The position numbers were made by a program, and so were the translations under genes. This document shows, piece after piece, positions 5,134-31,611 of a stretch of 32,610 nt of DNA. Numbering within the stretch: position 1 is the stretch's first letter; each line of letters begins with the position of its first letter. Source of the stretch: a virus; the IMG/VR virus record IMGVR_UViG_3300033150_001768, positions 1 to 32,610 of that record; one strand, given 5' to 3'. A model generated the notes under the pieces. The model saw only the letters and a program-made list of their open reading frames with translations, was not told where the DNA came from and searched no databases.

Positions 5134-6192
5134 TTAATAAAAAATCTCTTTATAATATCGTACCATATTCTTAAAATAATAATATTCATATCTTTCAACT
5201 GTTCTCCATATATTCTTTCCCTCCGCAACCTCTAAAGCCAATCGAGGGAGATTTACCACTTGTGAGCTCAACACTATCGTTCCACTCACCCGTGGATTTA
5301 TCTCTATGAGTTTAAAACCTCGTTCGGTTTCGATAAATTGAAGATTAACATTATAATAAAGATCCAACTTATCCACAATATATTTAGAAATCTTTTCCAA
5401 TTCCTCATTTTTTTCTATTCTTCCTTTTACGCATATTCCACTTCTCACTCTTTCCCTCACTCTAGTCACAATTATGGAATTTCCATAAAAGTCCCGCACA
5501 ATATCCGCACTCCATTCTTTACCTTTAAAAAATGGAGTTATCAAAAGGCCATTAACTTTTTTTACTTGTTCCCAATTTATGACTTTTAACAAATTGTCTT
5601 TATGAACAATTTGATAAGGAACAGGTTTAGATTCTAAATCTATTACACAATATTTATCCTTTAATATACATTTCATCAATCCTCTACTTCCATTACTTTC
5701 ACAAGGTTTAATAAAAAGTCCATTTTTCATTTCGTCCTTTTCCCAACATTCAATATCTTTTTCCATAAAACGATACATATCATCTTTATTATTCACTATT
5801 GAATAATGATACAAAAAATCTTCCTCATAAAACATTCCGCAAGTTCTTCCCTTATTTAAACATATTTTTAATTTCTCTTTATCATTTACCAATATTTTAC
5901 AGTCCTCTATTCCATTATATACTCGAACAGCTTTTAAAATACTTAATTTCATCAATTCCTGACTACTCATAGGTAATACAAAATCGATATTCTTTTCTCT
6001 GATAATTCTTATTATATCGTTTAAATATCTGTCGAAACTAGCTGGAAATATTACTTCACCCGGAATCATCTCCAATCCATAAGCCTCCGGATCACAATCC
6101 ACCCCATACAAATCATAGTAATTTCTTAATAACCGAATTATCGAACCAGCCCCAGGACATCCTACCGCCGTTAATAAAACTTTCTTTTTCAT
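5134..6192 (-). CDS. ATP-grasp ligase
   Basis: A 352-residue protein of the CarB/PylC-type ATP-grasp family, which joins a carboxylate to an amine or similar nucleophile through an acyl-phosphate. The N-terminus has a pre-ATP-grasp Rossmann-like fold (KVLLTAVGCPGAGSIIRLLR). The ATP-grasp core shows FIKPCESNGSRG (phosphate-binding loop), a strand with EWSADIV, and the metal-binding FIETERGFKLIEINPRVSGT. The substrate is unknown. It is two genes downstream of a PIG-L deacetylase; this pairing is seen in carbohydrate-modification clusters, so a role in modifying a sugar, DNA or the cell surface is possible but unproven. Confidence 0.8.
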   Translation of the reverse strand: MKKKVLLTAVGCPGAGSIIRLLRNYYDLYGVDCDPEAYGLEMIPGEVIFPASFDRYLNDIIRIIREKNIDFVLPMSSQELMKLSILKAVRVYNGIEDCKILVNDKEKLKICLNKGRTCGMFYEEDFLYHYSIVNNKDDMYRFMEKDIECWEKDEMKNGLFIKPCESNGSRGLMKCILKDKYCVIDLESKPVPYQIVHKDNLLKVINWEQVKKVNGLLITPFFKGKEWSADIVRDFYGNSIIVTRVRERVRSGICVKGRIEKNEELEKISKYIVDKLDLYYNVNLQFIETERGFKLIEINPRVSGTIVLSSQVVNLPRLALEVAEGKNIWRTVERYEYYYFKNMVRYYKEIFY

Positions 6193-6283
6193 TTTATTTA
6201 TCCCATTATGATTTTCACTAAATTTGAATTATCCAAAATCTCATTATATCTATTTACAACCCTCTTTTATATCAACTCCCATT

Positions 6284-6571
6284 TTAATTGTCTTTTTTCT
6301 CCTCTCTTAAATTATATAATAACATATTTTTCAAATTACATTCAAATTTCTCGTCTGAAACGAGTTCATGAGGATTGAAATTAATTTTTTTCTTTTTATT
6401 CAAATAACGAATAATATCCTCTTCGTTCAATTTTTTATAACTCAAAAATCTATACGATTTCCCGTAATAATTTATCTCTGCTCTTATACGTCCTTTACGA
6501 ATTAACAACGCCAAATAATCCCTTTGAAAACCGTATTTTTTACAAGCCTCCTCCATATCTATTGTTCCCAT
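6284..6571 (-). CDS. Excisionase/MerR-like winged-helix DNA-binding protein
   Basis: A protein of about 95 residues starting MGTIDMEEACKKYGFQRDYLALLIRKGRIRAE, followed by GKSYRFLSYKKLNEEDIIRYL. This is the helix-turn-helix plus wing plus C-terminal helix pattern of excisionase and MerR-type domains. The start is set at 6571 because GGGAGG lies at good spacing; the longer frame to 6601 has none and would overlap the upstream stop. It may be a local transcription regulator. No integrase is visible in the window. Confidence 0.6.
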   Translation of the reverse strand: MGTIDMEEACKKYGFQRDYLALLIRKGRIRAEINYYGKSYRFLSYKKLNEEDIIRYLNKKKKINFNPHELVSDEKFECNLKNMLLYNLREEKKDN

Positions 6572-6587
6572 ATTTTCTTCCTCCCTT

Positions 6588-7202
6588 TCAATTATCCACA
6601 AAATTAATTATTTCAAAAGCCTCAGCATATTCTACATTTATTATTCCTCCGTAAAATCTAGCCATAGCCTCTATATATTTTTGATTAGTATATTTTTTAC
6701 TGCTTTGAGAAATATAATTAGTTATCGCTTCGATTTTTGTCATAAGATGACACTTCTCTAATACAATAAAATCATTTACAAACGAATCCTTACAATTCCA
6801 AGGTTGCTTATAAGCAATCATATTACATCCAGCGAAAGCTCTTAAGCATTCCCGAGCCAAAACATGATGATCTTGATGCTTGTCTTTAACACTGGGAACT
6901 ACAACTAAATCAGGTTTAATTCTTCCTCTCAACCAAATTAAAGTATCTAAAAGCTTTTGCCGTACTTCGTAAAAATATCTCGTTCTGAATCCGTATATTA
7001 AAACATTATTCTCTTCAATTCCTAAACACTTTGTAGCCTCGTAGCATTCCTCTCTAGTATTATACTTTTTATTAATTTCGTCAGCGCTGCTCATAGCAAC
7101 GTAATGAACATCAAATCCCATCTCTATCCATTTAACTATACTCCCCCCAACCATTAATTCTACATCGTCCACATGAGCTCCAATACATAATATCCTCTTC
7201 AT
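6588..7202 (-). CDS. PIG-L family deacetylase
   Basis: A 204-residue zinc-dependent N-deacetylase of the PIG-L/LmbE family, which removes acetyl groups from N-acetylglucosamine-type substrates. The zinc and catalytic motif AHVDD (residues 9-13) and a downstream HxDHH-type motif (KDKHQDHHVLA) are present. Length is typical. An AAGAGG site precedes the ATG. The neighbouring ATP-grasp enzyme suggests a small carbohydrate or cofactor modification pathway; the true substrate is not evident. Confidence 0.88.
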   Translation of the reverse strand: MKRILCIGAHVDDVELMVGGSIVKWIEMGFDVHYVAMSSADEINKKYNTREECYEATKCLGIEENNVLIYGFRTRYFYEVRQKLLDTLIWLRGRIKPDLVVVPSVKDKHQDHHVLARECLRAFAGCNMIAYKQPWNCKDSFVNDFIVLEKCHLMTKIEAITNYISQSSKKYTNQKYIEAMARFYGGIINVEYAEAFEIINFVDN

Positions 7203-12799: not shown

Positions 12800-13732
12800 T
12801 TAACCCGAAATAAAACTCAAATAGCAAGACAAAACCAAAGAACTTTCCACATCTGTAGTCTGATCTAATAAATTCAAAAAAACATCCAACACCTCTCCCG
12901 CCTGTCTATTATTTTTTCCGCTTAATAACACCTTTTTCATATACCCTATCACAGCTAATTTAACCTCCATAGGTTCCTTATTTTTTAAAACTTCTTTTAA
13001 CGTATCAGCTATCTCTTTCCAACTCTTATCCTTTCTCTTTATCAACAATCTACATAAATCCAAAACATCCTTAGACAAATACAAAGAATCCTCTTCCAAC
13101 ACGTCTAAAGCGTCTTCATTATCCAAATCTTTCACCTTTTCCAACAAAATCAAAGCCTCTCTAGGATTTCCCCGACTTTTTTCGGCTATCGTGAGATAAA
13201 CCTCTTTACTTTTAATTATATTTTCTTTTTTAGCCACCGATTTCAACAAATACACTATCTCTTTCTCTTTCAATGGCTTAACTTTAAATTCCATACACCT
13301 AGATTTCAAAGGTTTAATCAATTTCTCCGGATTAGTAGTACACAAAAAGAAATAAGAAAACTCGTTCACATCTTCCAACGGTTTCAACATAGAATTTTGC
13401 CAATCATTAGTAGTCTTATGTACTTCATCTATTATAAAAACCCTAGGCAATCCATCTACAGGTAGAAATTTCATATCATCTATTATTTTTCTAGCAGTGT
13501 CTATTCCTCGATTATTAGAAGTATTAATCTCCGTTATTCCATAATCAGAAGCACCGATTTCCTTAGCACATATTCTAGCCAAAGTAGTTTTTCCGCACCC
13601 CCTATCCCCCGAAAACAAATACACATGAGGTCTATCTTTTCTTTTTATCACGCTTTTCAAACTTTCTATCACAATTTTATTTCCCACCATTTCCTCGAAA
13701 TTTTGTGGTCTGTATTTGTTATATAGATTCAT
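12800..13732 (-). CDS. Clamp loader ATPase (RFC/DnaX-like)
   Basis: A 310-residue AAA+ clamp loader starting MNLYNKYRPQNFEEMVGNK, the hallmark opening of RFC small subunits and DnaX. The Walker A is SGDRGCGKTT, the Walker B is VFIIDEVH, sensor 1 is FFLCTTNPE, and the arginine-finger motif is KPLKSRCMEF. It loads the sliding clamp onto primed DNA. The start is the ATG at 13732, which overlaps the polymerase stop (AATGA) and has a GGGGAGG site; the upstream extension to 13780 is discarded. Confidence 0.92.
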   Translation of the reverse strand: MNLYNKYRPQNFEEMVGNKIVIESLKSVIKRKDRPHVYLFSGDRGCGKTTLARICAKEIGASDYGITEINTSNNRGIDTARKIIDDMKFLPVDGLPRVFIIDEVHKTTNDWQNSMLKPLEDVNEFSYFFLCTTNPEKLIKPLKSRCMEFKVKPLKEKEIVYLLKSVAKKENIIKSKEVYLTIAEKSRGNPREALILLEKVKDLDNEDALDVLEEDSLYLSKDVLDLCRLLIKRKDKSWKEIADTLKEVLKNKEPMEVKLAVIGYMKKVLLSGKNNRQAGEVLDVFLNLLDQTTDVESSLVLSCYLSFISG

Positions 13733-16248
13733 TGCGCGTTCCTCCCCTTTAAACATCCTCCATCTTTCATATTTCCCCAATTTCCATTTATCTCAGAATA
13801 CTCCTTTTCTATTGTCAAAGGAACTATTATCCAATCCCAATGTTCCCTTATTTTTTTCGTTCCATAATACCAAATCCAATAATCTATCTCCTCTTCATCC
13901 TCAGGACATACGTCCATAACTATGGAATCATGAATCTGTCCTATAATATAACTTTTATCCATCTTTTTCATTTTTCGAGACACCTGTATCAAAGTCCAAA
14001 GCAAACAATGAAAAGCGCTTCCTTGAATCAGATAATTAATTACTTCATTCTTTCTCATAGGACCGTAGCAACGAAAACCCGTATACATATCCAAATAGCC
14101 TTTCTTTTTATAAGAGGACAATATTTCTTCTCGCCATTCCTTAAAAACCCGAAATTTTTCATTCCAAAACCTATACTCTACCATCTCCAAATGATCTTCA
14201 AAATCCTCTACATTCTTTATTCCCTCTTTTTCCAAATGTTCCCGAGTACCATCTGGTAATCTTTTCCATATATCTTCATACAAATTTCCATACCAACTTC
14301 CATAAAACTCCGGAAACACGAATCCATTCTTAGCCAAATATCTTTCCTCTTTAGTCACATCATCTTTCAAAAACAATTCCTTAGCCATATCACGATGTAA
14401 ATCTGAGGAAGGATTTTCGATATATCTAATCAATTCCGGATCTTTATTATAACAAGCCGACACATTAACTTCCATAGATTTATAATCATATTCCACTAAT
14501 TTGTTTCCCTCTCTGGGTATTAGCAAAGATCTTACGATTCTTTTAATCTTTTCGTCTCTTTTTGGAATATTTTGAAAATTAGGATTGGAAGAAGAAGAAC
14601 GAAAAGTAGCCACATTCTCAAGCCGAAACACCGGATGTATAAAACCGTCTTTAATTTCTCTACTAAATTGCTCTAAATAATTTTTCAATTTATCCCACTT
14701 TCTGTATTCCAATATTTTCCTTGTAAAATCGGTATTTAAATCAGCTAAAACATTTTTAGATGTAGAAAAATTTCCCCTCGAAGTGTAATTTTCAGCCTTG
14801 ATGCCCAATATTCCGTATAACAACTCAGACAACTGTTGATTAGACCTAAAATTAATTTCAGTTTTTTTATTTTTTTTCCACCTTTGAGCCTCTGAAGAAC
14901 TTAAAATATCCTCACCTATCCTATTCAGCCTCTTAACTAATTTATCTCTTTGAATTTTCAATTTATTTTCATTAATTCTTATTCCATTATAACTAATGTC
15001 GGACAAAACAATGTTCCCTTTCAGAAAAAATTCCACTCCTTTCAACAAATTCTCTCTCTCTTTTTTGGAAAAAAACTTTTTCTGTTTCAAATATTCCCAA
15101 AAAGTGAACAAAGAATCCTGAGCACAATAACGACTAATTTTTTCCGAATCCGCTTTATCCAATTTGTTAAATGAAGAGGTGTCTTTGGGATCTTTACCCT
15201 TAATGAATTTCTCAGAATAATCATCATACCCCAATATACCAAAATCCTTATACACCAGATATTTCAATCCCACTGCTTTAGTATTCTGAACACAATGTTG
15301 AACTATCATAGTATCCCATTTCCAATTTTTCACCTCTATATCCAATATTTTTTTACTCCATAATTTTTCGAACCTAGCATTATGAGCAATTTTCCCTATT
15401 TCCTCAGACATCAAAAACTTTTTCCATAATTTCAAGAATGTTTCATTCTCGAAAAAAGGAAATCCGAAAGCCCTTTTACCATTACTAATGCTGGCAAATA
15501 ATATTCGATGTCCTTCTCGATATGGGGAAAGTCCCGTAGTTTCGTAATCAAAAGCCCATTCCTTTCCATTTTCGCCCTTCAAAATTTTAATCAAAACACT
15601 AACAATCCTCCTCGGATCCGTTACAATTTCTATTCGTTTATCTATATCGGAATAATCAGGAAATTCCACAGAATCCAAAAACATTAAAGCCTTTCGAATA
15701 TATTTCATCCATAATTTTTTCAATACCTCATCTTTTTCATTTCTCATAATATAAGCAGGATGCCAAACAGGACATACCCAAGCCTTTAACTCCTGATCCG
15801 GTATAATTTCACCTACCCAATTACCAAAACTCAATCCATTTATTCTTCCACTAATCCGATAACCTAACAATCCCTCAAAAGCAACCTTACCAAACAAAAA
15901 AATCAATTTTGGTCTTAAAATTTTTGTTTCTTTTAATAAATAATACCTACACAAACTGATCTGTCTCCCTGTGGGCGTTTTATTCTCAGGAGGTCTACAA
16001 CGAACCGCATTCGTTTTCCAACAATCCTCCTCCATCTCTATATCCAAATCCTCTAAAGCCTCCCTTAATATCTGTCCACTTCTTCCCACAAATTGAACAT
16101 CTTTCTCATCCTCCACCGCACCCGGAGCCTCCCCCACTATTAATATCTCTTTTTTTCCCTTCCCCGTATATCTCATAAAAGGATTTCTAGCCCCCTCATA
16201 TAAACCACACTTTCTACAATCTTCCGAAATATCTTCCAATAAATTCAT
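13729..16248 (-). CDS. Uracil-DNA-glycosylase / family A DNA polymerase fusion
   Basis: An 839-residue replicative polymerase with an N-terminal family 4-like uracil-DNA glycosylase. The glycosylase part has GEAPGAVEDEKDVQFVG (39-55), NAVRCRPPENKTPT and VWHPAYI, and four cysteines (C11, C14, C84, C100) placed as in 4Fe-4S family 4 enzymes. The 3'-5' exonuclease shows DYETTG (234-239), HNARFEK (289-295; Glu where Asp is usual) and YCAQD (374-378). Polymerase motif A is EYDYKSME (587-593), motif B is RYLAKNGFVFPEFYG (636-650), and motif C is IHDS (772-775; Ser replaces the usual Glu). It overlaps the clamp-loader gene. Confidence 0.93.
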   Translation of the reverse strand: MNLLEDISEDCRKCGLYEGARNPFMRYTGKGKKEILIVGEAPGAVEDEKDVQFVGRSGQILREALEDLDIEMEEDCWKTNAVRCRPPENKTPTGRQISLCRYYLLKETKILRPKLIFLFGKVAFEGLLGYRISGRINGLSFGNWVGEIIPDQELKAWVCPVWHPAYIMRNEKDEVLKKLWMKYIRKALMFLDSVEFPDYSDIDKRIEIVTDPRRIVSVLIKILKGENGKEWAFDYETTGLSPYREGHRILFASISNGKRAFGFPFFENETFLKLWKKFLMSEEIGKIAHNARFEKLWSKKILDIEVKNWKWDTMIVQHCVQNTKAVGLKYLVYKDFGILGYDDYSEKFIKGKDPKDTSSFNKLDKADSEKISRYCAQDSLFTFWEYLKQKKFFSKKERENLLKGVEFFLKGNIVLSDISYNGIRINENKLKIQRDKLVKRLNRIGEDILSSSEAQRWKKNKKTEINFRSNQQLSELLYGILGIKAENYTSRGNFSTSKNVLADLNTDFTRKILEYRKWDKLKNYLEQFSREIKDGFIHPVFRLENVATFRSSSSNPNFQNIPKRDEKIKRIVRSLLIPREGNKLVEYDYKSMEVNVSACYNKDPELIRYIENPSSDLHRDMAKELFLKDDVTKEERYLAKNGFVFPEFYGSWYGNLYEDIWKRLPDGTREHLEKEGIKNVEDFEDHLEMVEYRFWNEKFRVFKEWREEILSSYKKKGYLDMYTGFRCYGPMRKNEVINYLIQGSAFHCLLWTLIQVSRKMKKMDKSYIIGQIHDSIVMDVCPEDEEEIDYWIWYYGTKKIREHWDWIIVPLTIEKEYSEINGNWGNMKDGGCLKGRNAQ

Positions 16249-17322: not shown

Positions 17323-18072
17323 TCACGCCTCCCTACTATATATTGTATTGATTTTCGTTGGATTCAATCTCTTTTTATACCATTCCAATCCTTCACTATC
17401 CAAACATCCACCATCGTTGACCAATCCCTGATGAAAAGCCCAGCGATAGAAAAATAATCGGCTGATGTCCTGTAGCTTAGGATAGTCCAAAGTGAGCAAA
17501 TAACGAAAATTAATATACATATAATTTCTGTCCCAAATCATTATTGAATATAATTTTCCACTTTCCCTTCCGTACAAAAACATTCTCTTACCAGTTTCAA
17601 AAATCGTTCTAAACATAACCTCTGGTTCATACCAATTCTTTCCTTCATTCTCCTTCACCCATCTATCCAAAAAGCTTTTCAACACATCCTCATCAACCTC
17701 TTTGCTCAAAATCAATTCAGCTTCCACTTCATTTCGGAATTTTCTTATATTTTTTCTAAATAATTTCCATCGCTTTCCCTCCAAATTCATAAAACTACCG
17801 GGATCATATATAAATTCATAATCCAAAAATTTCCCTTTATTATAATCAGGAAAACCTGCCCAAAAATCCATCTCATCATAATCGAACCTCTCCTCAACTA
17901 TATCAAAAGCTGGCAACATGTTTTTTCCATCTTCATCTACAACGATTAAATATTTCCCGTCAAGCACCGCCTTCCATCCGGCATATTTCCAATAATCTTC
18001 ACTACAAAAAAAGTTAGGTTCAACATTTTTACGTTCCAAAGCACTCAAATAAACATCCTCTCTTTTACTCAA
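17323..18072 (-). CDS. GNAT/DUF2156-like acyltransferase-fold protein
   Basis: A protein of about 250 residues resembling the C-terminal GNAT-fold domain of phosphatidylglycerol lysyltransferases and FemX-like proteins. Supporting segments are KLFRKNIRKFRNE, GKLYSIMIWDRNYMYINFRYLLTLDYPKLQDISRLFF and NDGGCLDSEGLEWYKKRLNPTKINTIY, where a family-typical N-D-G and a late fold-closing strand appear. The open frame runs to 18108. A TTG at 18072 behind a run of G is likely the start, overlapping the stop of a small gene. The substrate is unknown; DNA base modification is a speculation from its radical SAM neighbours. Confidence 0.6.
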   Translation of the reverse strand: MSKREDVYLSALERKNVEPNFFCSEDYWKYAGWKAVLDGKYLIVVDEDGKNMLPAFDIVEERFDYDEMDFWAGFPDYNKGKFLDYEFIYDPGSFMNLEGKRWKLFRKNIRKFRNEVEAELILSKEVDEDVLKSFLDRWVKENEGKNWYEPEVMFRTIFETGKRMFLYGRESGKLYSIMIWDRNYMYINFRYLLTLDYPKLQDISRLFFYRWAFHQGLVNDGGCLDSEGLEWYKKRLNPTKINTIYSREA

Positions 18073-18202
18073 AAAGTTTCCCCCCTTCCCGCTTTTTATT
18101 TTTTTCAATCACTTTTGACACTTGTTTTCTTATTCCGCTTTTCTTTAACCTATCAATAAGTTTCTTACTTATTGTCCCCGTCTTTCGACTTTTTCCTCCC
18201 AT
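18065..18202 (-). CDS. Small basic protein (45 aa)
   Basis: A 45-residue strongly basic frame starting MGGKSRKTGTISKKLIDRL. It has one of the best ribosome binding sites in the window (AAAAGGAG, 7 nt from the ATG). It overlaps the end of the preceding clamp-like gene by 38 bp and the start of the next gene by 8 bp, so it links them translationally. It has no recognised domain. It could be a nucleic-acid-binding peptide or simply a coupling leader. Confidence 0.5.
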   Translation of the reverse strand: MGGKSRKTGTISKKLIDRLKKSGIRKQVSKVIEKNKKREGGKLFE

Positions 18203-18935: not shown

Positions 18936-20246
18936 AAAATTCCCTCCAATAATTTTTCTCTAAAATCATACTCATCATCATATTTCCACACTATTCCCCA
19001 TTCATCCTGGCCCACTGCCGTTATCCCTTTAGCCCAAAATATTGGCCAAGCAGCATTCCCTTCTCCATTCCAAAGCATCCACACTTCTTTTTTTATACCT
19101 CGGGAAAGAAAACCACCTTTACTATTAACGAAATTTTTAAAATCTTTCCAAGACACTTTTTCTCCTCTCTTGGATTTAATATATTTTATAGCTATAACAC
19201 CGCAACCCCAATTAAATCCTTTTCCGAACCGATCCCCCACACTACAACATATCCAATCGTCATTATCTGGAACATTTCCTGAATCGAAAGTACTAGCTTG
19301 TAACCCTCTACTCTTGAAATAATTGATGAATTTTCCTAACAAATAACTAGACAACCATTGACTATCCGCAGAAAGCAAAAACATCCTATCAAAATCCATT
19401 CCTATATCGTAAAAATTCTCCGCTATCCCCCGACTCCAAGCCGAATAACTATAACTATCAAAAGTCAAATACTCCGCCCCCACTTCTTTCATTTTTTCTA
19501 TATATTCACCGTTTTTCGAAAGAGGGAGCGCCCGGTTCCACCTTTCTTATAAATTCCGGATCCGCAGAAATAAGAGTCATGTGAACGGCAGACCCCGCTC
19601 CATTATCAGACAAAACTCTCACGTATTCCTCTTCCCCTATCAAATCACTTTTAGTATTCACCATAGTGGGATATTCCACATCTCTCAAATACTTCAACAA
19701 CTGCAAAGATATCCCTTTTTTTCTTTCAGCATAAATAAAATCCTCAAACCTTATTCCCAATCTCATAGGTATTTCCAATCTTATAGCGTTTAGCAGAGCC
19801 TTTGATTCAATGTCGGTTTTCTCTCCTCTATGTTTTAAAATTTTATCCAATTTCGAAATATAAAACTTAGGATCAGAATACCTCAAACCCAAATACTTAC
19901 TATTATCAAAAAAACTAGTATACAATGAATGTTTAAAATAATCAGCATAGCAATAACGACATCGGAAAGGACACCTCATTCCATCCCAAACATCTATATT
20001 AAGAGGCATAGGGCAACTTTGAGCCCTCAGCGACACTTCAGCGAAACTCTTTATATTCTCTTTATCCAACAATCTCTCTATTTTCACGTTCTCCCTTTTC
20101 ACCAAATTAAATTCGTAGTAATTACTCTTCCTCCCTTTTTCTTTCAATCTATAAACATTTCCAGTATCAAACCGAGATGATCTCGGAATGAGTTTCGCTA
20201 TTAATTTTCTCAATTCCCAATAATCCATTTCCTTTAATTCATTCAT
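18932..20246 (-). pseudogene. Radical SAM (SPL-like) gene split by a +1 frame change
   Basis: Two adjacent frames read as one radical SAM protein. The first (19506-20246) carries the cluster motif CPFRCRYCY (C92, C96, C99) and reaches EPGAPSFEKR, matching the EPGTxSFxxR region of spore photoproduct lyase-like enzymes. It then stops at TGA (19506-19508). Skipping one T (CGG-T-GAA) continues directly as EYIEKMKEVGAEYLTFDSYSYSAW in the frame that runs to 18932, giving about 437 residues. It may be a mutation, an assembly error or programmed +1 shifting at a CGG-TGA site. The product could repair DNA lesions or modify bases. Confidence 0.75.
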
Positions 20247-20263
20247 TAAACAAATCCTCTTTT

Positions 20264-21337
20264 CTAAAATAAATCGCCCTCATCCCTTTTTTCACACTTT
20301 ATGTCTTTCAAGCTATACACCTCATCTATTTCACCTTTCAATATCTTCAAACCGAAATCAAAGTCCCCCACCCCATCCCAAGTCTCTTTCGCTATCGAAT
20401 CCAAATCTCCAATTCCCTTCAAGCGAAGCTTCTTCCAATTTATAATATTAAAAGTAGTAGGATTAGGAACGTCGATTCCACAACAGGTGTTGGCTTGCTC
20501 TTGATACTTTCCGGAATTAACAAAATCCGGACATCCCAAATCTATTCCATTCTCAACAGCTATCTCTATTAACTCAGGCAACACTCTTCCCCAATTTTCG
20601 TCTCGATTCATTATCCATATCCTCTCTATGTCCAACCCCAATTTAGTCAACTCCTTAGCCACCCAATCGTTCAAATGTAAGTTATATATATTATATGATT
20701 TTATTCCAAAATCTTTTAATTTTTTTATCATTTTTTCAAAATCTTTTACACTATGATACCCAGGAATGAACGGTTCACCGTTCACTCCCACGTTAAACCC
20801 TGCTTCCTGAAGAAGTTGAACGTGTTCTAACCTTTCTATTGGATTAGTAGTTCTTTCGAATTCCAACAATTTCCAATCTTTCTCCAATCCACAACTAATC
20901 ACGGGCATTATTGTTATATTCTTTTTATTCTCTTTTAAATATTCCAAATCCCGTAAAAGATTAGCAGTAGATTTGGTTTGAATAACATAACTCCATTCTA
21001 ATTCATTTAACACCTGTATTAATTTTTGAGTAACTTTATATTCGATTTCGCAATCTTGATAAGGATCAGCTTTATTTCCAAAACGAATGGTTTTCCTTTG
21101 TTTTATAGCAAAAGCCAATGGAGTTCGAGGATTGGGATTTTTTAAACCATTAATCAATTGTTTTTTCACTAAATTGGGGTCCGTCTTTCTTTGTTCAAAA
21201 CCCCACGTTCTATTCATTCTCCTCATAAAACAATCAGCACACTGACTATAACAATTCCAATAGGAATCCAACTGAAAACTCAAAGGGCAATAATAACTAT
21301 CTCCACGAATAGATAAAGCCTTCTTTAAAATCTTCAT
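20264..21337 (-). CDS. Radical SAM protein
   Basis: A 357-residue radical SAM enzyme. The cluster motif is CYSQCADC (C29, C33, C36). Later segments fit a TIM-barrel radical SAM core of the spore photoproduct lyase-like group: IRFGNKADPYQDCE, YVIQTKSTANLLRDLEYL, ITIMPVISCGLEKDW and ERTTNPIERLEHVQLLQEAGFNVGVNGEPFIPGY. Extra cysteines (ANTCCGID, LGCPDF) near the C-terminus might bind a second cluster. The reaction is not known. It neighbours a second, frameshifted radical SAM gene and the DnaB-type helicase. A GGAG site supports the start. Confidence 0.85.
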   Translation of the reverse strand: MKILKKALSIRGDSYYCPLSFQLDSYWNCYSQCADCFMRRMNRTWGFEQRKTDPNLVKKQLINGLKNPNPRTPLAFAIKQRKTIRFGNKADPYQDCEIEYKVTQKLIQVLNELEWSYVIQTKSTANLLRDLEYLKENKKNITIMPVISCGLEKDWKLLEFERTTNPIERLEHVQLLQEAGFNVGVNGEPFIPGYHSVKDFEKMIKKLKDFGIKSYNIYNLHLNDWVAKELTKLGLDIERIWIMNRDENWGRVLPELIEIAVENGIDLGCPDFVNSGKYQEQANTCCGIDVPNPTTFNIINWKKLRLKGIGDLDSIAKETWDGVGDFDFGLKILKGEIDEVYSLKDIKCEKRDEGDLF

Positions 21338-27861: not shown

Positions 27862-28015
27862 TAAAACGCTCACTCTAAGTGGTTTTCTCTCTGTCTATGG
27901 CTCGCTCTAGTGAAATGGATTTCTCTCACCGTGTGGCTCGCTCTTATATTATGGTTTTCTCCGAGAGAATGGCTCGCTCATTTATTATGGTTTCCTCTTA
28001 TTAGATGGCCAAGTT
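27862..28015 (-). repeat. TIGR-like array 2 (orphan array between Rad50-N and Mre11)
   Basis: Four 36-bp units with exact periodicity. On the minus strand a 10-bp edge repeat (GAGCGAGCCA) alternates with a 10-bp loop repeat (GAGAAATCCA or GAGAAAACCA), separated by 8-nt variable segments. Edge copies start (plus coordinates) at 27862, 27898, 27934, 27970 and 28006; the two outermost are degenerate. Loop copies start at 27880, 27916, 27952 and 27988. All eight spacers differ. The units contain in-frame stops, so this is not a peptide repeat. The repeats match array 1 beside the Tas-like gene, so that protein could process or use both. The array forms the 3' end of the Rad50-N gene. Confidence 0.85.
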
Positions 28016-29064
28016 TGTCCGCAGAGAGGACAAATGTCTGGTAAAGCCTCTTTGTCCTCCGATATTCTTTTTTCTAAATCTTCGATTCTCTTCTTTCCAT
28101 TAATCCACTCATTTAGCAAAGATTCCACCTCAACAACCTCTTCCCGTAATCCTCCCGCCTCCTTTTCCATCTTACTTATTTCTTCAATCCCTTTTCTCAT
28201 CCCCACAACATCATTTAATTTTTTCCTTTTCAATTCCAATCTCTCCGCCTCATCCAAAAGCCCTCCCACCTCTTCGACTTCAACTTCCAAATCCCGCACC
28301 TTTTTCTCCAATTTCTCCAATTCGGAAAAATCGCCCTTAAGTTCCTCCAAAATCCTTAACCTCTCCAACGCTCTTTCCATCCGTTCTATCTCACTCAGTA
28401 AAGATTCCACCTCAACAACCTCTTCCCATTTCGCCTTAATCCGATAATCCAACTTTTCACAGCTCTCCAACTTTCCCTTAATCTCTTCCACCCATCCTAA
28501 ACTCTTCAATCGGCTCTTCAAATCACTTTTCTCTTTCTCAATCTCACCCAACTTCATCTTCACCTCTCTCTTATCCCTGGACATCCGACTGTACAGTCGA
28601 TCTATCTTATCCAGTCCCATCAGCTTATTCAAATAGCGGGTGGCCTCCCCCGAACTCCAAGACAACAGAAAAGAGGAATCAAATTGCCTCTGAAAATTAA
28701 TCTCATTCAAATTCAAAATCCTCTTCACGCTTTCCGGAACATCCCTTCCCACTGCTTTCAATTTCTCTCCATTCACCACATAATAATTCTCTTTATCAGT
28801 CCGAACCCTCACCACCTCATCTTCATCTTTTCGTATTTTCACTTTCACTGGCTTAATAATTCGGCCCTTATTGTCTCGATTGTAATTCCCTACCATAGAC
28901 AAACCTGACGGCCGATTGTACAAAACCCAACTGATAGCCCTCAATACAGAAGTTTTCCCCACATTCGATCCTCCTACAAAAACATTAATTCTCGGAGAAA
29001 ACTCTATGAAAGTGTTCCGATGTGATTGAAAATTAACCAGTCTTATGCTTTTTAACATTCCCAT
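27985..29064 (-). CDS. Rad50/SbcC N-terminal half ending at the zinc hook
   Basis: A 359-residue protein equal to the N-terminal half of Rad50/SbcC. The Walker A is GGSNVGKTS (31-39), and INFQRQFDSSFLLSWSSGEA provides the Q-loop region. A long coiled coil follows, ending in the zinc-hook motif CPLCG (345-349). The gene stops ten residues later, inside array 2, whose first loop repeat encodes the last residues. The C-terminal half is encoded separately at 25698-26315. The start overlaps the initiator gene and has GAGGAGG upstream. Confidence 0.88.
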   Translation of the reverse strand: MGMLKSIRLVNFQSHRNTFIEFSPRINVFVGGSNVGKTSVLRAISWVLYNRPSGLSMVGNYNRDNKGRIIKPVKVKIRKDEDEVVRVRTDKENYYVVNGEKLKAVGRDVPESVKRILNLNEINFQRQFDSSFLLSWSSGEATRYLNKLMGLDKIDRLYSRMSRDKREVKMKLGEIEKEKSDLKSRLKSLGWVEEIKGKLESCEKLDYRIKAKWEEVVEVESLLSEIERMERALERLRILEELKGDFSELEKLEKKVRDLEVEVEEVGGLLDEAERLELKRKKLNDVVGMRKGIEEISKMEKEAGGLREEVVEVESLLNEWINGKKRIEDLEKRISEDKEALPDICPLCGQTWPSNKRKP

Positions 29065-30422
29065 TCATCCTCCTCATTTTTTTCTTCTTCTCGCTCATTG
29101 GTATGAAAAGTTTTATTCATCCGCGCCTTGTCTTCATCGGGGAAAAGGTCATAGCCGAAAGTTTGTTTTATGTGATCATTAAACCGATGCCAGGTGGTCG
29201 TATAAACTCCTAATTGACTTACACTTAGATCCCTCCACTCTTTCAAGTACTCAACATAATACCCGAAATAAGTTCTCCAATTTCGAAAATAAGAATCGAA
29301 ACCGCTTTCATTGAAATTTTGCCAATAAAGGGTTTCCTTGTTTTCCTTCCACCATTTGTAGAGGCTATACATTTTTTTCCAATAAATCAGCTCATTAAAA
29401 CCTGGCCTATAAAATTCTTCAATAGGTTTCCGATCCTCTGCGGGAATAGATTCCTTGATTTTCCTTATAATGATTTGGCCTGAACTCTCCGGTTTTTTAT
29501 TTAAACAAAACATAAACCACGATTTTTTATTATAGCCATCATATAACCAAAGAGAGAAATCCCGCGTCAATATGTTTTTATTGGATGGTTGATAATTCTC
29601 ATCCCACATTTTAACATATCTTTCCACAGCCTTTTTCAATAAACTTTTAAGCCCCTTCTCGCTGTATTTTTTACCAAATATATTCCTCTTCAATTTCCAT
29701 TTTTTAATCCATTCCTCATCCAACTCTGGATTGAATTCCCCGTTTAGCATCCCTATCAATATATTTATTATTCTATCAAATTTCTTAGTAGACTGGCCAG
29801 CTCCAGGTATCCTGTTTTTAAAGCCCCCCAACTTTATCATTTCTACAGCAATTTTTTTAGCAACTTTTTTAAGGGAATTTGTTGTGTTAATTTTTTTATT
29901 GGATTTCCTAAAAGAGAGGGAATCCTCGAATTCTTTGAATTCGAGTATATCTTCTTTAGAAGATATTTTTCTATTAGTAATATTATTATTACTTTGGTTA
30001 GTTAAGTTTTTTAACTTTGGGAAGTTAAATTTTTTAACTAACAGAACCAAAAAATCCGGCCTCAACCGATAATGAACCACAGGAAATCCTCCCACCTTCT
30101 TCACCTTAGTTTCCAGCACTCCCATCTCTTTTAGTTGTTTTGCGGAGGACATTACCTGGTATTTAGACAGGTTTATCTCCTTTTTCCAGTCCTCGTAGGT
30201 CTTGAATATCCAACCGTCTTTCGTCTTATCTGTCCAATACAACAGCTGGCTTAACAACAACGCAGTATTTATCCTTCCGTCGCAGTAATCTATGAACAAT
30301 CGGGGGATTACTAAAAGGTTGGCCTGGCCAGAGAGCTGTGTTATCATGTGTAGGACTTGTCGTTGGCTTAGGTGGTGATTAACATTTTCTTTCGTATTCG
30401 AGTTTTCTTTTTCTTTGTTCAT
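29052..30422 (-). CDS. Replication initiator (winged-helix replisome organiser)
   Basis: A 456-residue protein. Residues 30-125 form a winged helix like those of phage replication initiators and DnaD-type organisers: NLLVIPRLFIDYCDGRINTALLLSQLLYW, YEDWKKEINLSKYQVMSSAKQLKEMGVLETK, GGFPVVHYRL. A low-complexity linker (about 135-175) coincides with a cluster of DNA inverted repeats. The C-terminal part is rich in aromatic residues and not recognised; it may bind the helicase. It is the first protein gene after the tRNA, at the head of the replication module. GAGAGG lies upstream of the ATG. Confidence 0.72.
   Translation of the reverse strand: MNKEKENSNTKENVNHHLSQRQVLHMITQLSGQANLLVIPRLFIDYCDGRINTALLLSQLLYWTDKTKDGWIFKTYEDWKKEINLSKYQVMSSAKQLKEMGVLETKVKKVGGFPVVHYRLRPDFLVLLVKKFNFPKLKNLTNQSNNNITNRKISSKEDILEFKEFEDSLSFRKSNKKINTTNSLKKVAKKIAVEMIKLGGFKNRIPGAGQSTKKFDRIINILIGMLNGEFNPELDEEWIKKWKLKRNIFGKKYSEKGLKSLLKKAVERYVKMWDENYQPSNKNILTRDFSLWLYDGYNKKSWFMFCLNKKPESSGQIIIRKIKESIPAEDRKPIEEFYRPGFNELIYWKKMYSLYKWWKENKETLYWQNFNESGFDSYFRNWRTYFGYYVEYLKEWRDLSVSQLGVYTTTWHRFNDHIKQTFGYDLFPDEDKARMNKTFHTNEREEEKNEEDEWEC
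29926..30043. other. Candidate replication origin inside the initiator gene
   Basis: A 118-bp AT-rich stretch holding four consecutive inverted repeats: 29926-29946 (CTCGAATTC-TTT-GAATTCGAG), 29948-29967 (ATATCTTC-TTTA-GAAGATAT), 29977-29994 (AGTAATA and TATTACT arms), and 29998-30043 (GTTAGTTAA and TTAACTAAC arms). The last contains two near-identical direct copies of AGTTAARTTTTTTAACT (30001-30017 and 30024-30040), each itself a hairpin. It encodes the variable linker of the initiator. Iterons inside the initiator gene are the arrangement known from lambda O and other phage origins. Confidence 0.55.
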
Positions 30423-30543
30423 ATTATCGGGAAAACCTCTCTATTTTTATATAATATAATATAAAAATTACTTAACTTTTTTCATAAAAAGAAATTTTAA
30501 TTTTGTTGTTCCTTTTTTTCGGTTCTTTACGTAAAAACTCATT

Positions 30544-30627
30544 GGGGCAGGGCAGGATTCGAACCTGCACAGCACGGCTTGTCGAACCATGTGCCCGACG
30601 CGTCTATCCAATTCCGCCACCTGCCCC
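30544..30627 (-). tRNA. Leucine-type tRNA with apparent CAU anticodon
   Basis: An 84-nt cloverleaf. A perfect 7-bp acceptor stem (GGGGCAG/CTGCCCC) is followed by A73. The D-arm GCGGAATTGGATAGACGC is the bacterial leucine form. The T-arm is GCAGG-TTCGAAT-CCTGC, and a long variable region has a 3-bp stem. This body is class II tRNA-Leu. The anticodon arm TCGGG-CACATGG-TTCGA has two G-U pairs and puts CAU at positions 34-36, with A instead of the universal U at 33. CCA is not encoded. It may be a functional odd tRNA or a decaying gene. Confidence 0.8.
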
Positions 30628-30677: not shown

Positions 30678-30905
30678 TGTTTCGCTCGGCTATGATGGTT
30701 TTCCCAAACTCCTTGGCTCGCTCTCCCAACTTGGATTTCTCTTGGTTTTTGGCTCGCTCTCCCAACTTGGATTTTTCTTGGTTTTTGGCTCGCTCGGAAA
30801 GTGTTGGTTTCTCTTAACGTGTGGCTCGCTCTTCATTTTTGGATTTCTCTTTTTAGACATGGCTTGCTCATGGGCGATGGATTTCTCTTTCCTCCTGGCT
30901 CGCTT
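30678..30905 (-). repeat. TIGR-like array 1 (tandem interspaced guide array)
   Basis: Six 36-bp-class units plus a closing repeat. On the minus strand, edge repeats GAGCGAGCCA alternate with loop repeats GAGAAATCCA, separated by 8-nt variable segments (occasionally 9 or 10). Edge copies start (plus coordinates) at 30678 (degenerate), 30714, 30750, 30786, 30822, 30860 and 30896; loop copies at 30696, 30732, 30768, 30805, 30840 and 30878. Units 30714-30749 and 30750-30785 carry identical spacer pairs, a recent duplication. The array begins at the stop codon of the Tas-like gene, as expected for a co-transcribed guide array. A 36-nt unit with two spacers matches the described tigRNA layout. Confidence 0.88.
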
Positions 30906-31611
30906 ACATACCATGTCTCTTTCCCAGGTATTCCTCCGAATACGGCTTTCTCACTGGCAATCCTTCCAACGTCCTCCACGCCACGTACAGATCCTTAAGA
31001 AACATTTTTACCATATATCGATTAGCTGCATTGTGTTGATGAAAAGCCTTGGGATTTTTGGGATCGCTTGGGTTCTTGCTGGGTGTGCCCCAGTCTTTTG
31101 AATGCAACCTGTTTTTCATATTATCGTAATATTCGCGATAAGGAGAATTACTCATCAGGAACGAATGCCCCAGGACTCCCAGAAGCTTAGATTTAAGAAA
31201 TTGATTGTACGGGCATTTTTTTCCTTTCGTCTTCTTGTCTTTGCCTGGAGCTAGTCCGCTGAAACTCCACAGTTTGCTTACGGTGTCAGCTTTATGGATA
31301 TCAAACTCACTAATAATCACTGCCGCCATAGTCTCTCCACACCCCTTCACATGTTTTAAAAAGTTTTCCCACAGCGGATGTTTGCGTATTTCTTTGGCAA
31401 TTTTGCGGGAAATCTCTTCTTCCATCGCCAGCACGTCTTCTCTGCGATTTAATATCTCTACTAAAAACGCAGGGTCACGCTCTGGAGCTCCTTTTTTTAC
31501 CTTTCCGTTTTTCTTAATTCCCAATCTGTTGTCGAGGGATATGCGTTCGCGTTGGTAATCGTAGTATATTCGTGTTAGTGTTTTGATAGAGTTTCTTGTT
31601 TTTTCATCCAT
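30904..31611 (-). CDS. Tas-like Nop-domain protein (IS110 C-terminal-related), no nuclease domain
   Basis: A 235-residue protein related to the C-terminal domain of IS110-family transposases and to Nop5/Nop-domain RNA-binding proteins. Residues 47-80 form a coiled coil. Residues 84-165 contain HVKGCGETMAAVIISEFDIHKADTVSKLWSFSGLAPGK and FLKSKLLGVLGHSFLMSNSPYREYY, matching the helix-hairpin-helix and GLAP region of that fold. The N-terminal DEDD domain of IS110 is absent, and the serine-bearing segment after GLxP is replaced by KDKKTKGKKCPYN. No HNH or RuvC domain is fused. It ends on array 1, so it is probably the guide-RNA-binding effector, of the nuclease-free Tas type. Confidence 0.8.
   Translation of the reverse strand: MDEKTRNSIKTLTRIYYDYQRERISLDNRLGIKKNGKVKKGAPERDPAFLVEILNRREDVLAMEEEISRKIAKEIRKHPLWENFLKHVKGCGETMAAVIISEFDIHKADTVSKLWSFSGLAPGKDKKTKGKKCPYNQFLKSKLLGVLGHSFLMSNSPYREYYDNMKNRLHSKDWGTPSKNPSDPKNPKAFHQHNAANRYMVKMFLKDLYVAWRTLEGLPVRKPYSEEYLGKRHGM

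What the first reader, a model, noticed from the sequence alone, without database searches (positions are those of the whole stretch)
30544..30627. Class II leucine-type tRNA with CAU anticodon and A33
D-arm, long variable region and A73 identify a tRNA-Leu body, yet the anticodon loop reads CACATGG: CAU at 34-36 and A at 33 where U is nearly universal. If charged with leucine it could read AUG (or AUA after lysidine modification). It might misread start codons, be cleavage-resistant, or be a decoy.
Basis: partly seen in the sequence, partly recalled or inferred. Interest (0 to 1): 0.6.

Follow-up and report, generated by a model that had tools for sequence, protein, structure and literature searches.

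The report
Phage tRNA-Leu-like RNA, anticodon replaced
An uncultured phage carries a small RNA gene folded like a leucine tRNA whose anticodon arm is closed into a stiff hairpin that probably cannot read codons; it looks like one member of a large, apparently undescribed group of phage tRNA-Leu-shaped RNAs in which the anticodon region has been swapped for other sequence.

Summary
The gene is real: ARAGORN and Rfam both find a tRNA at 30543-30627 on the minus strand, with a tRNA-Leu D-arm, long variable region, perfect T-arm and acceptor, and CAT at the anticodon position. "A CAU-decoding tRNA" is probably wrong. The arm pairs as GTCGGGC-ACATG-GTTCGAC, a 7-bp helix with a 5-nt loop, 7.7 kcal/mol better than the 5-bp/7-nt arm. 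Of 61 bacterial tRNA-Leu genes with this D-arm, all have U33 and a canonical arm, and none has C32:G38. The D-loop GG-AT-AGACGC carries one extra nucleotide; no tRNA with such a loop turned up in 260 bacterial genomes, while the ordinary form was in 88 of 101. In viral contigs the same D-arm marks a large set of elements with matching acceptor and T-arm but no anticodon arm: 161 of 168 distinct ones have an insert of 20-229 nt instead. The triplet at the "anticodon" position is essentially arbitrary, so CAU here is likely coincidental. Best reading: a non-decoding, tRNA-Leu-scaffolded phage RNA, a compact member of that group. Its function is inferred only. No paper found describes the group.

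The parts
30543..30627 (-). tRNA-Leu-like RNA gene, 85 nt, CCA not encoded
   Evidence: ARAGORN; Rfam RF00005; sequence
30620..30627 (-). acceptor 5' strand GGGGCAGG (8 nt; pairs with 30544-30551)
   Evidence: sequence; structure
30600..30619 (-). tRNA-Leu-type D-arm TGGCGGAATTGGATAGACGC with 2 nt between GG and AGACGC
30581..30599 (-). hairpin in place of an open anticodon arm: GTCGGGC-ACATG-GTTCGAC, 7 bp and 5-nt loop, two G.U pairs
30589..30591 (-). CAT at the nominal anticodon position (probably not a working anticodon)
30569..30580 (-). class II variable region with a 3-bp arm AGC-CGT-GCT
   Evidence: sequence inspection; structure used
30552..30568 (-). T-arm GCAGG-TTCGAAT-CCTGC
30543..30551 (-). 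acceptor 3' strand CCTGCCCC followed by A (discriminator if the acceptor is 8 bp)

Best explanation
It is a non-decoding, tRNA-Leu-shaped small RNA of a phage. The phage keeps the parts that tRNA-handling enzymes recognise (acceptor, D-arm, T-arm, long variable region, A at the 3' end) and has a closed 7-bp hairpin in place of the anticodon arm. Likely course (inferred): it is co-transcribed with its neighbours, cut out by host RNase P and 3' tRNA nucleases, given CCA and thereby stabilised; it may be charged by LeuRS, which in bacteria does not need the anticodon, but cannot decode. It then acts off the ribosome, most plausibly as a stable scaffold or decoy that engages host tRNA-binding proteins (LeuRS, EF-Tu, tRNA-targeting defence nucleases). 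Shown here: sequence, predicted structure, the shared D-arm, and the existence of many similar anticodon-less elements in other phages. Not shown: expression, processing, charging, target.
For: Hairpin: -38.6 vs -30.9 kcal/mol for the canonical arm, pair probabilities at least 0.99 with the cloverleaf held. Cellular control: 61/61 Leu tRNAs with the same D-arm pattern have canonical arm, U33, A73 and a 1-nt D-loop spacer; C32:G38 0/61; 26:44 Watson-Crick 1/61. Extra D-loop nucleotide: no tRNA among 260 genomes of three phyla (the one hit, L188, shows no tRNA), ATAG form 0/199 in the phylum of an Alicyclobacillaceae genome, ordinary form in 55/60 and 33/41 genomes; in viral elements found without selecting for it, 19 of 119. 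Viral class: 161 of 168 distinct elements lack a canonical arm; a scan on an acceptor ending GCAGG, blind to the anticodon, gave 18 contigs with no canonical U33 arm, one (L268) with the window's 7-nt acceptor GGGCAGG and a 148-nt insert. Compact relatives with short hairpins: CCCC-GTYGA-GGGG (L028, L034), GGGWA-ACC-TWCCC with a compensatory change between L033 and L058. Elements sit mostly between same-strand genes, as in the window. LeuRS identity without the anticodon: PMC9976931.
Against: The window's insert (31 nt) is the length of a normal class II anticodon-plus-variable region, so it could be a tRNA-Leu with a mutated arm. Its acceptor is not the AGTCAGG of the main group and it lacks the group's common upstream T. 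The D-arm used to find the class was chosen from the window. No close relative carrying an orthologous copy was found. No expression data.
Confidence: 0.6

Rival explanations
1. A degenerating tRNA-Leu pseudogene: an acquired tRNA-Leu whose anticodon arm drifted after selection for decoding was lost.
For: G37 and the insert length fit descent from a CUN-reading tRNA-Leu (G36-G37 in 39 of 61 cellular Leu tRNAs). Truncated or odd Leu-like elements occur elsewhere (L013).
Against: Acceptor 8/8, T-stem 5/5, D-stem 3/3 are perfect while all oddities fall in the anticodon arm and D-loop; the arm's changes increase pairing (7 bp) instead of breaking it. The extra D-loop nucleotide was not found in cellular tRNA-Leu.
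Confidence: 0.22
2. A phage tRNA that still decodes but whose anticodon loop was altered to escape host anticodon nucleases.
For: Such phage tRNAs with mutated anticodon loops are described (PMC10264068).
Against: Those tRNAs are proposed to keep decoding; here U33 is lost, the loop is closed to 5 nt and the triplet no longer matches the leucine body.
Confidence: 0.07
3. A processing or regulatory element in the leader of the replication operon: the tRNA shape is a cleavage signal for RNase P or a binding site for a synthetase.
For: It lies 122 nt upstream of the O-like replication gene 29052-30422 and 277 nt downstream of 30904-31611, all on the minus strand; most related elements also lie between same-strand genes.
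Against: In many other phages the elements lie among tRNA genes (e.g. L035, L068), where no leader role is obvious; the consensus scan found no terminator, and its promoter-like sites lie downstream of the element, not upstream.
Confidence: 0.08
4. A working CAU tRNA charged with leucine (or methionine) that reads AUG or AUA.
For: CAT at the nominal anticodon position.
Against: Closed loop, no U33, G37 after U36; class II body; among the Leu D-arm plus CAT matches in viral contigs (18) and in 84,980 bacterial and archaeal species genomes (8) no intact class II CAU tRNA was recognised.
Confidence: 0.03

Closest known systems
Bacterial tRNA-Leu (class II)
   Same: D-arm, long variable region, T-arm, A after the acceptor
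   Different: anticodon arm closed (7 bp, 5-nt loop), no U33, no leucine anticodon, extra D-loop nucleotide, 8-bp acceptor
Bacteriophage T4 stable RNAs, species 1 (rnaC) and species 2 (rnaD)
   Same: phage-encoded stable RNAs beside tRNA genes; rnaC ends in a T-arm CCGGG-TTCGAAT-CCCGG
   Different: no tRNA-Leu D-arm seen in either; different sequence and length (139 and 119 nt)
Phage tRNAs with anticodon-loop mutations that evade tRNases (van den Berg et al. 2023, PMC10264068)
   Same: phage tRNA with altered anticodon loop
   Different: those are proposed to go on decoding; this arm is not expected to
GOLLD and ROOL RNAs (PMC12286853)
   Same: noncoding RNAs of phages and prophages near tRNA islands
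   Different: far larger, no tRNA-Leu scaffold; Rfam finds neither in the loci tested

Membership tests
functional tRNA-Leu | Leu-type D-arm with U8, A14, G18G19 | tested here: met
   pattern shared with 61 cellular genes
functional tRNA-Leu | open 7-nt anticodon loop with U33 | tested here: not met
   A at 33, C32:G38 pair; 61/61 cellular have U33
functional tRNA-Leu | leucine anticodon | tested here: not met
   CAU
functional tRNA-Leu | A73 discriminator on a 7-bp acceptor | tested here: inconclusive
   A only if the acceptor is 8 bp; C with 7 bp
tRNA-Met / tRNA-Ile2 (CAU) | class I body, U33, A37 | tested here: not met
   class II variable region, A33, G37
tRNA-Sec | UCA anticodon and long D-stem with an 8-bp acceptor | tested here: not met
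   8-bp acceptor present, but CAU and 3-bp D-stem
phage anticodon-less tRNA-Leu-scaffold RNAs (group defined here) | D-arm TGGCGGAA..GG..AGACGC with paired acceptor and T-arm | tested here: met
phage anticodon-less tRNA-Leu-scaffold RNAs (group defined here) | no canonical anticodon arm | tested here: met
phage anticodon-less tRNA-Leu-scaffold RNAs (group defined here) | acceptor AGTCAGG and T at -1 (main subgroup) | tested here: not met
   acceptor GGGCAGG, G at -1; other acceptors occur in the group
anticodon-nuclease-insensitive phage tRNA | decoding competence retained | not testable with these tools
   structure argues against it

The most novel reading that the evidence does not exclude
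Tailed phages carry a widespread class of modular RNAs in which a fixed tRNA-Leu scaffold presents a hypervariable insert in place of the anticodon arm, several different ones per genome (L035 five, L068 and L170 four), matured by host tRNA enzymes and working off the ribosome, for example as decoys against tRNA-targeting defences or as scaffolded regulatory RNAs; the window holds a compact member.
Probability: 0.45. Interest if true: 0.85.

Novelty: new variant of a known kind. Interest (0 to 1): 0.62.

Why it matters
Phage tRNA genes have been explained by codon supply or by replacing cleaved host tRNAs. Phage RNAs with a tRNA-Leu body and no anticodon arm fit neither and are called by tools as ordinary or odd tRNAs (e.g. 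Met, Gln, Arg) or missed. If they are expressed they make a testable new use of the tRNA scaffold, and they would change how phage tRNA counts are read.

Tried and rejected
An intact class II CAU tRNA lineage: Leu D-arm plus CAT patterns in viral contigs and species genomes gave no recognisable one. An intron restoring a leucine anticodon: the window's insert is only 31 nt and some related inserts are 20-24 nt, too short for an anticodon arm plus variable arm plus intron. Nearest tRNA by blastn: only partial matches in phages and weak ones in plasmids, no near match. Close relatives of the phage by replication, terminase and helicase proteins: none or too short to cover the site. Host: not identified. 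A dedicated aminoacyl donor for a tRNA-dependent transferase (ORF 17323-18108 has a sub-threshold LPG_synthase_C hit) was considered and left as too weak. Insert clustering gave 99 singletons of 150, little covariation to use. Literature searches found no description; the library lacks most subscription papers, so absence is weak evidence.

Full report
What is there. The window is one virus record of 32,610 bases: terminase, PolA fused to a uracil-DNA-glycosylase domain, clamp loader, UvsX/RecA-like, RuvC-like, primase, helicase and replication genes, nearly all on the minus strand. One tRNA gene is found, at 30543-30627 minus, called tRNA-Met(cat) by ARAGORN and tRNA with 38.8 bits by Rfam. 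Minus-strand sequence: GGGGCAGG TGGCGGAATTGGATAGACGC GTCGGGCACATGGTTCGAC AAGCCGTGCTGT GCAGGTTCGAATCCTGC CCTGCCCC A.

Anatomy. With U8 as anchor the acceptor has 8 pairs, followed by A; counted as 7 pairs the next base is C, pairable with G-1. The arm at the anticodon position pairs as GTCGGGC-ACATG-GTTCGAC. With the cloverleaf held, this is worth -38.6 kcal/mol against -30.9 for the canonical 5-bp/7-nt form, and all seven pairs have probability at least 0.99. Without constraint the minimum is another fold at -39.8. In 61 cellular Leu tRNAs with the same D-arm pattern, position 33 is always U, 32:38 is never C:G, 26:44 is Watson-Crick once, and position 37 is G after G36 or A after A36. The window has A33, C32:G38, G26:C44 and U36-G37.

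The D-loop. GG-AT-AGACGC has two nucleotides where cellular tRNA-Leu have one. In 260 genomes of three phyla the two-nucleotide form matched once, and that match (L188) shows no tRNA. The ATAG form was absent from 199 genomes of a further phylum, that of an Alicyclobacillaceae genome. The one-nucleotide form was present in 55 of 60 and 33 of 41 genomes, so the search works.

The viral class. Searching the window's D-arm in viral contigs gave 33 loci, nearly all with paired acceptor and T-arm but without an anticodon arm. In all, 161 of 168 distinct elements lack a canonical arm; inserts run 20-229 nt, median 56 (the longest may span two elements). Of 179 D-arm hits, 166 have a matching T-arm and acceptor against 2 of 3580 shuffles. 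The triplet at the anticodon position takes 49 values in 156 elements. A scan on acceptors ending GCAGG, blind to the anticodon, gave 18 contigs, none with a canonical U33 arm; two (L259, L263) look like coding sequence, and L252 has a near-normal arm with C33. Some contig names carry isolate-type IMG identifiers, which suggests prophages; this is an inference from the names. Inserts are diverse (99 singletons of 150) and weakly structured (mean z -0.72). Rfam sees the elements as weak tRNA or not at all.

Placing the window element. It shares the exact D-arm, T-arm type and lack of a canonical arm, and its 7-nt acceptor GGGCAGG recurs in L268. It differs in acceptor and upstream base from the main subgroup and its insert is no longer than a normal one. 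Membership is likely, not proven; a degenerate tRNA-Leu is the main rival. The shared D-arm was the search key, so the D-loop comparison with cellular genomes and the blind GCAGG scan are the stronger tests.

Function. LeuRS identity in bacteria rests on A73, A20a, tertiary contacts and the large variable region, not the anticodon (PMC9976931), so charging is possible but uncertain given the extra D-loop base. Decoding is unlikely. Where a neighbouring ORF was called, 140 of 161 elements have a same-strand ORF upstream and 125 of 153 downstream, so release from a longer transcript by tRNA-processing enzymes is plausible. Decoy or scaffold is the proposed role, by inference only.

Verdict. The interest lies in the apparently undescribed group to which it seems to belong.

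Noticed in passing
window 30694-30904 and 27880-27998: arrays of a 36-base repeat with alternating TGGCTCGCTC and TGGATTTCTC half-units, in largely noncoding DNA near the ParB-like and replication genes; possible origin, parS-like or regulatory repeats
   Followed up: partly
window 30904-31611 minus: stand-alone protein with an IS110-family Transposase_20 domain, PHROG transposase 4285, next to the tRNA-like gene
   Followed up: no
window 13729-16248 minus: single ORF joining a uracil-DNA-glycosylase-family domain to a family A DNA polymerase
   Followed up: no
window 19506-21337 minus: two adjacent ORFs matching the same PHROG 13321, one with a weak radical SAM hit
   Followed up: no
window 5134-7202 minus: ATP-grasp and PIG-L deacetylase genes close together, possibly for DNA or surface modification
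   Followed up: no
window 30443-30468: directly adjacent 13-nt inverted repeat (92% complementary) ATTTTTATATAAT/ATAATATAAAAAT just upstream of the O-like replication gene
   Followed up: no
inserts of the viral elements, e.g. L035, L101: AGTAAG is the commonest 6-mer in the inserts (22 of 146), and GAGTAAGG also occurs in T4 rnaD; meaning unknown
   Followed up: partly
L253, L257, L264, L266: Leu-like elements with T-loop TGCAAAT and a shared upstream stretch GATAGGTTGGAATATCTATC; in L266 the element lies between a small regulator-like ORF and an HNH/terminase region
   Followed up: partly
L251:6614-6684 and L250:1505-1666: a Pistol ribozyme and a DUF2800 RNA in viral contigs
   Followed up: no
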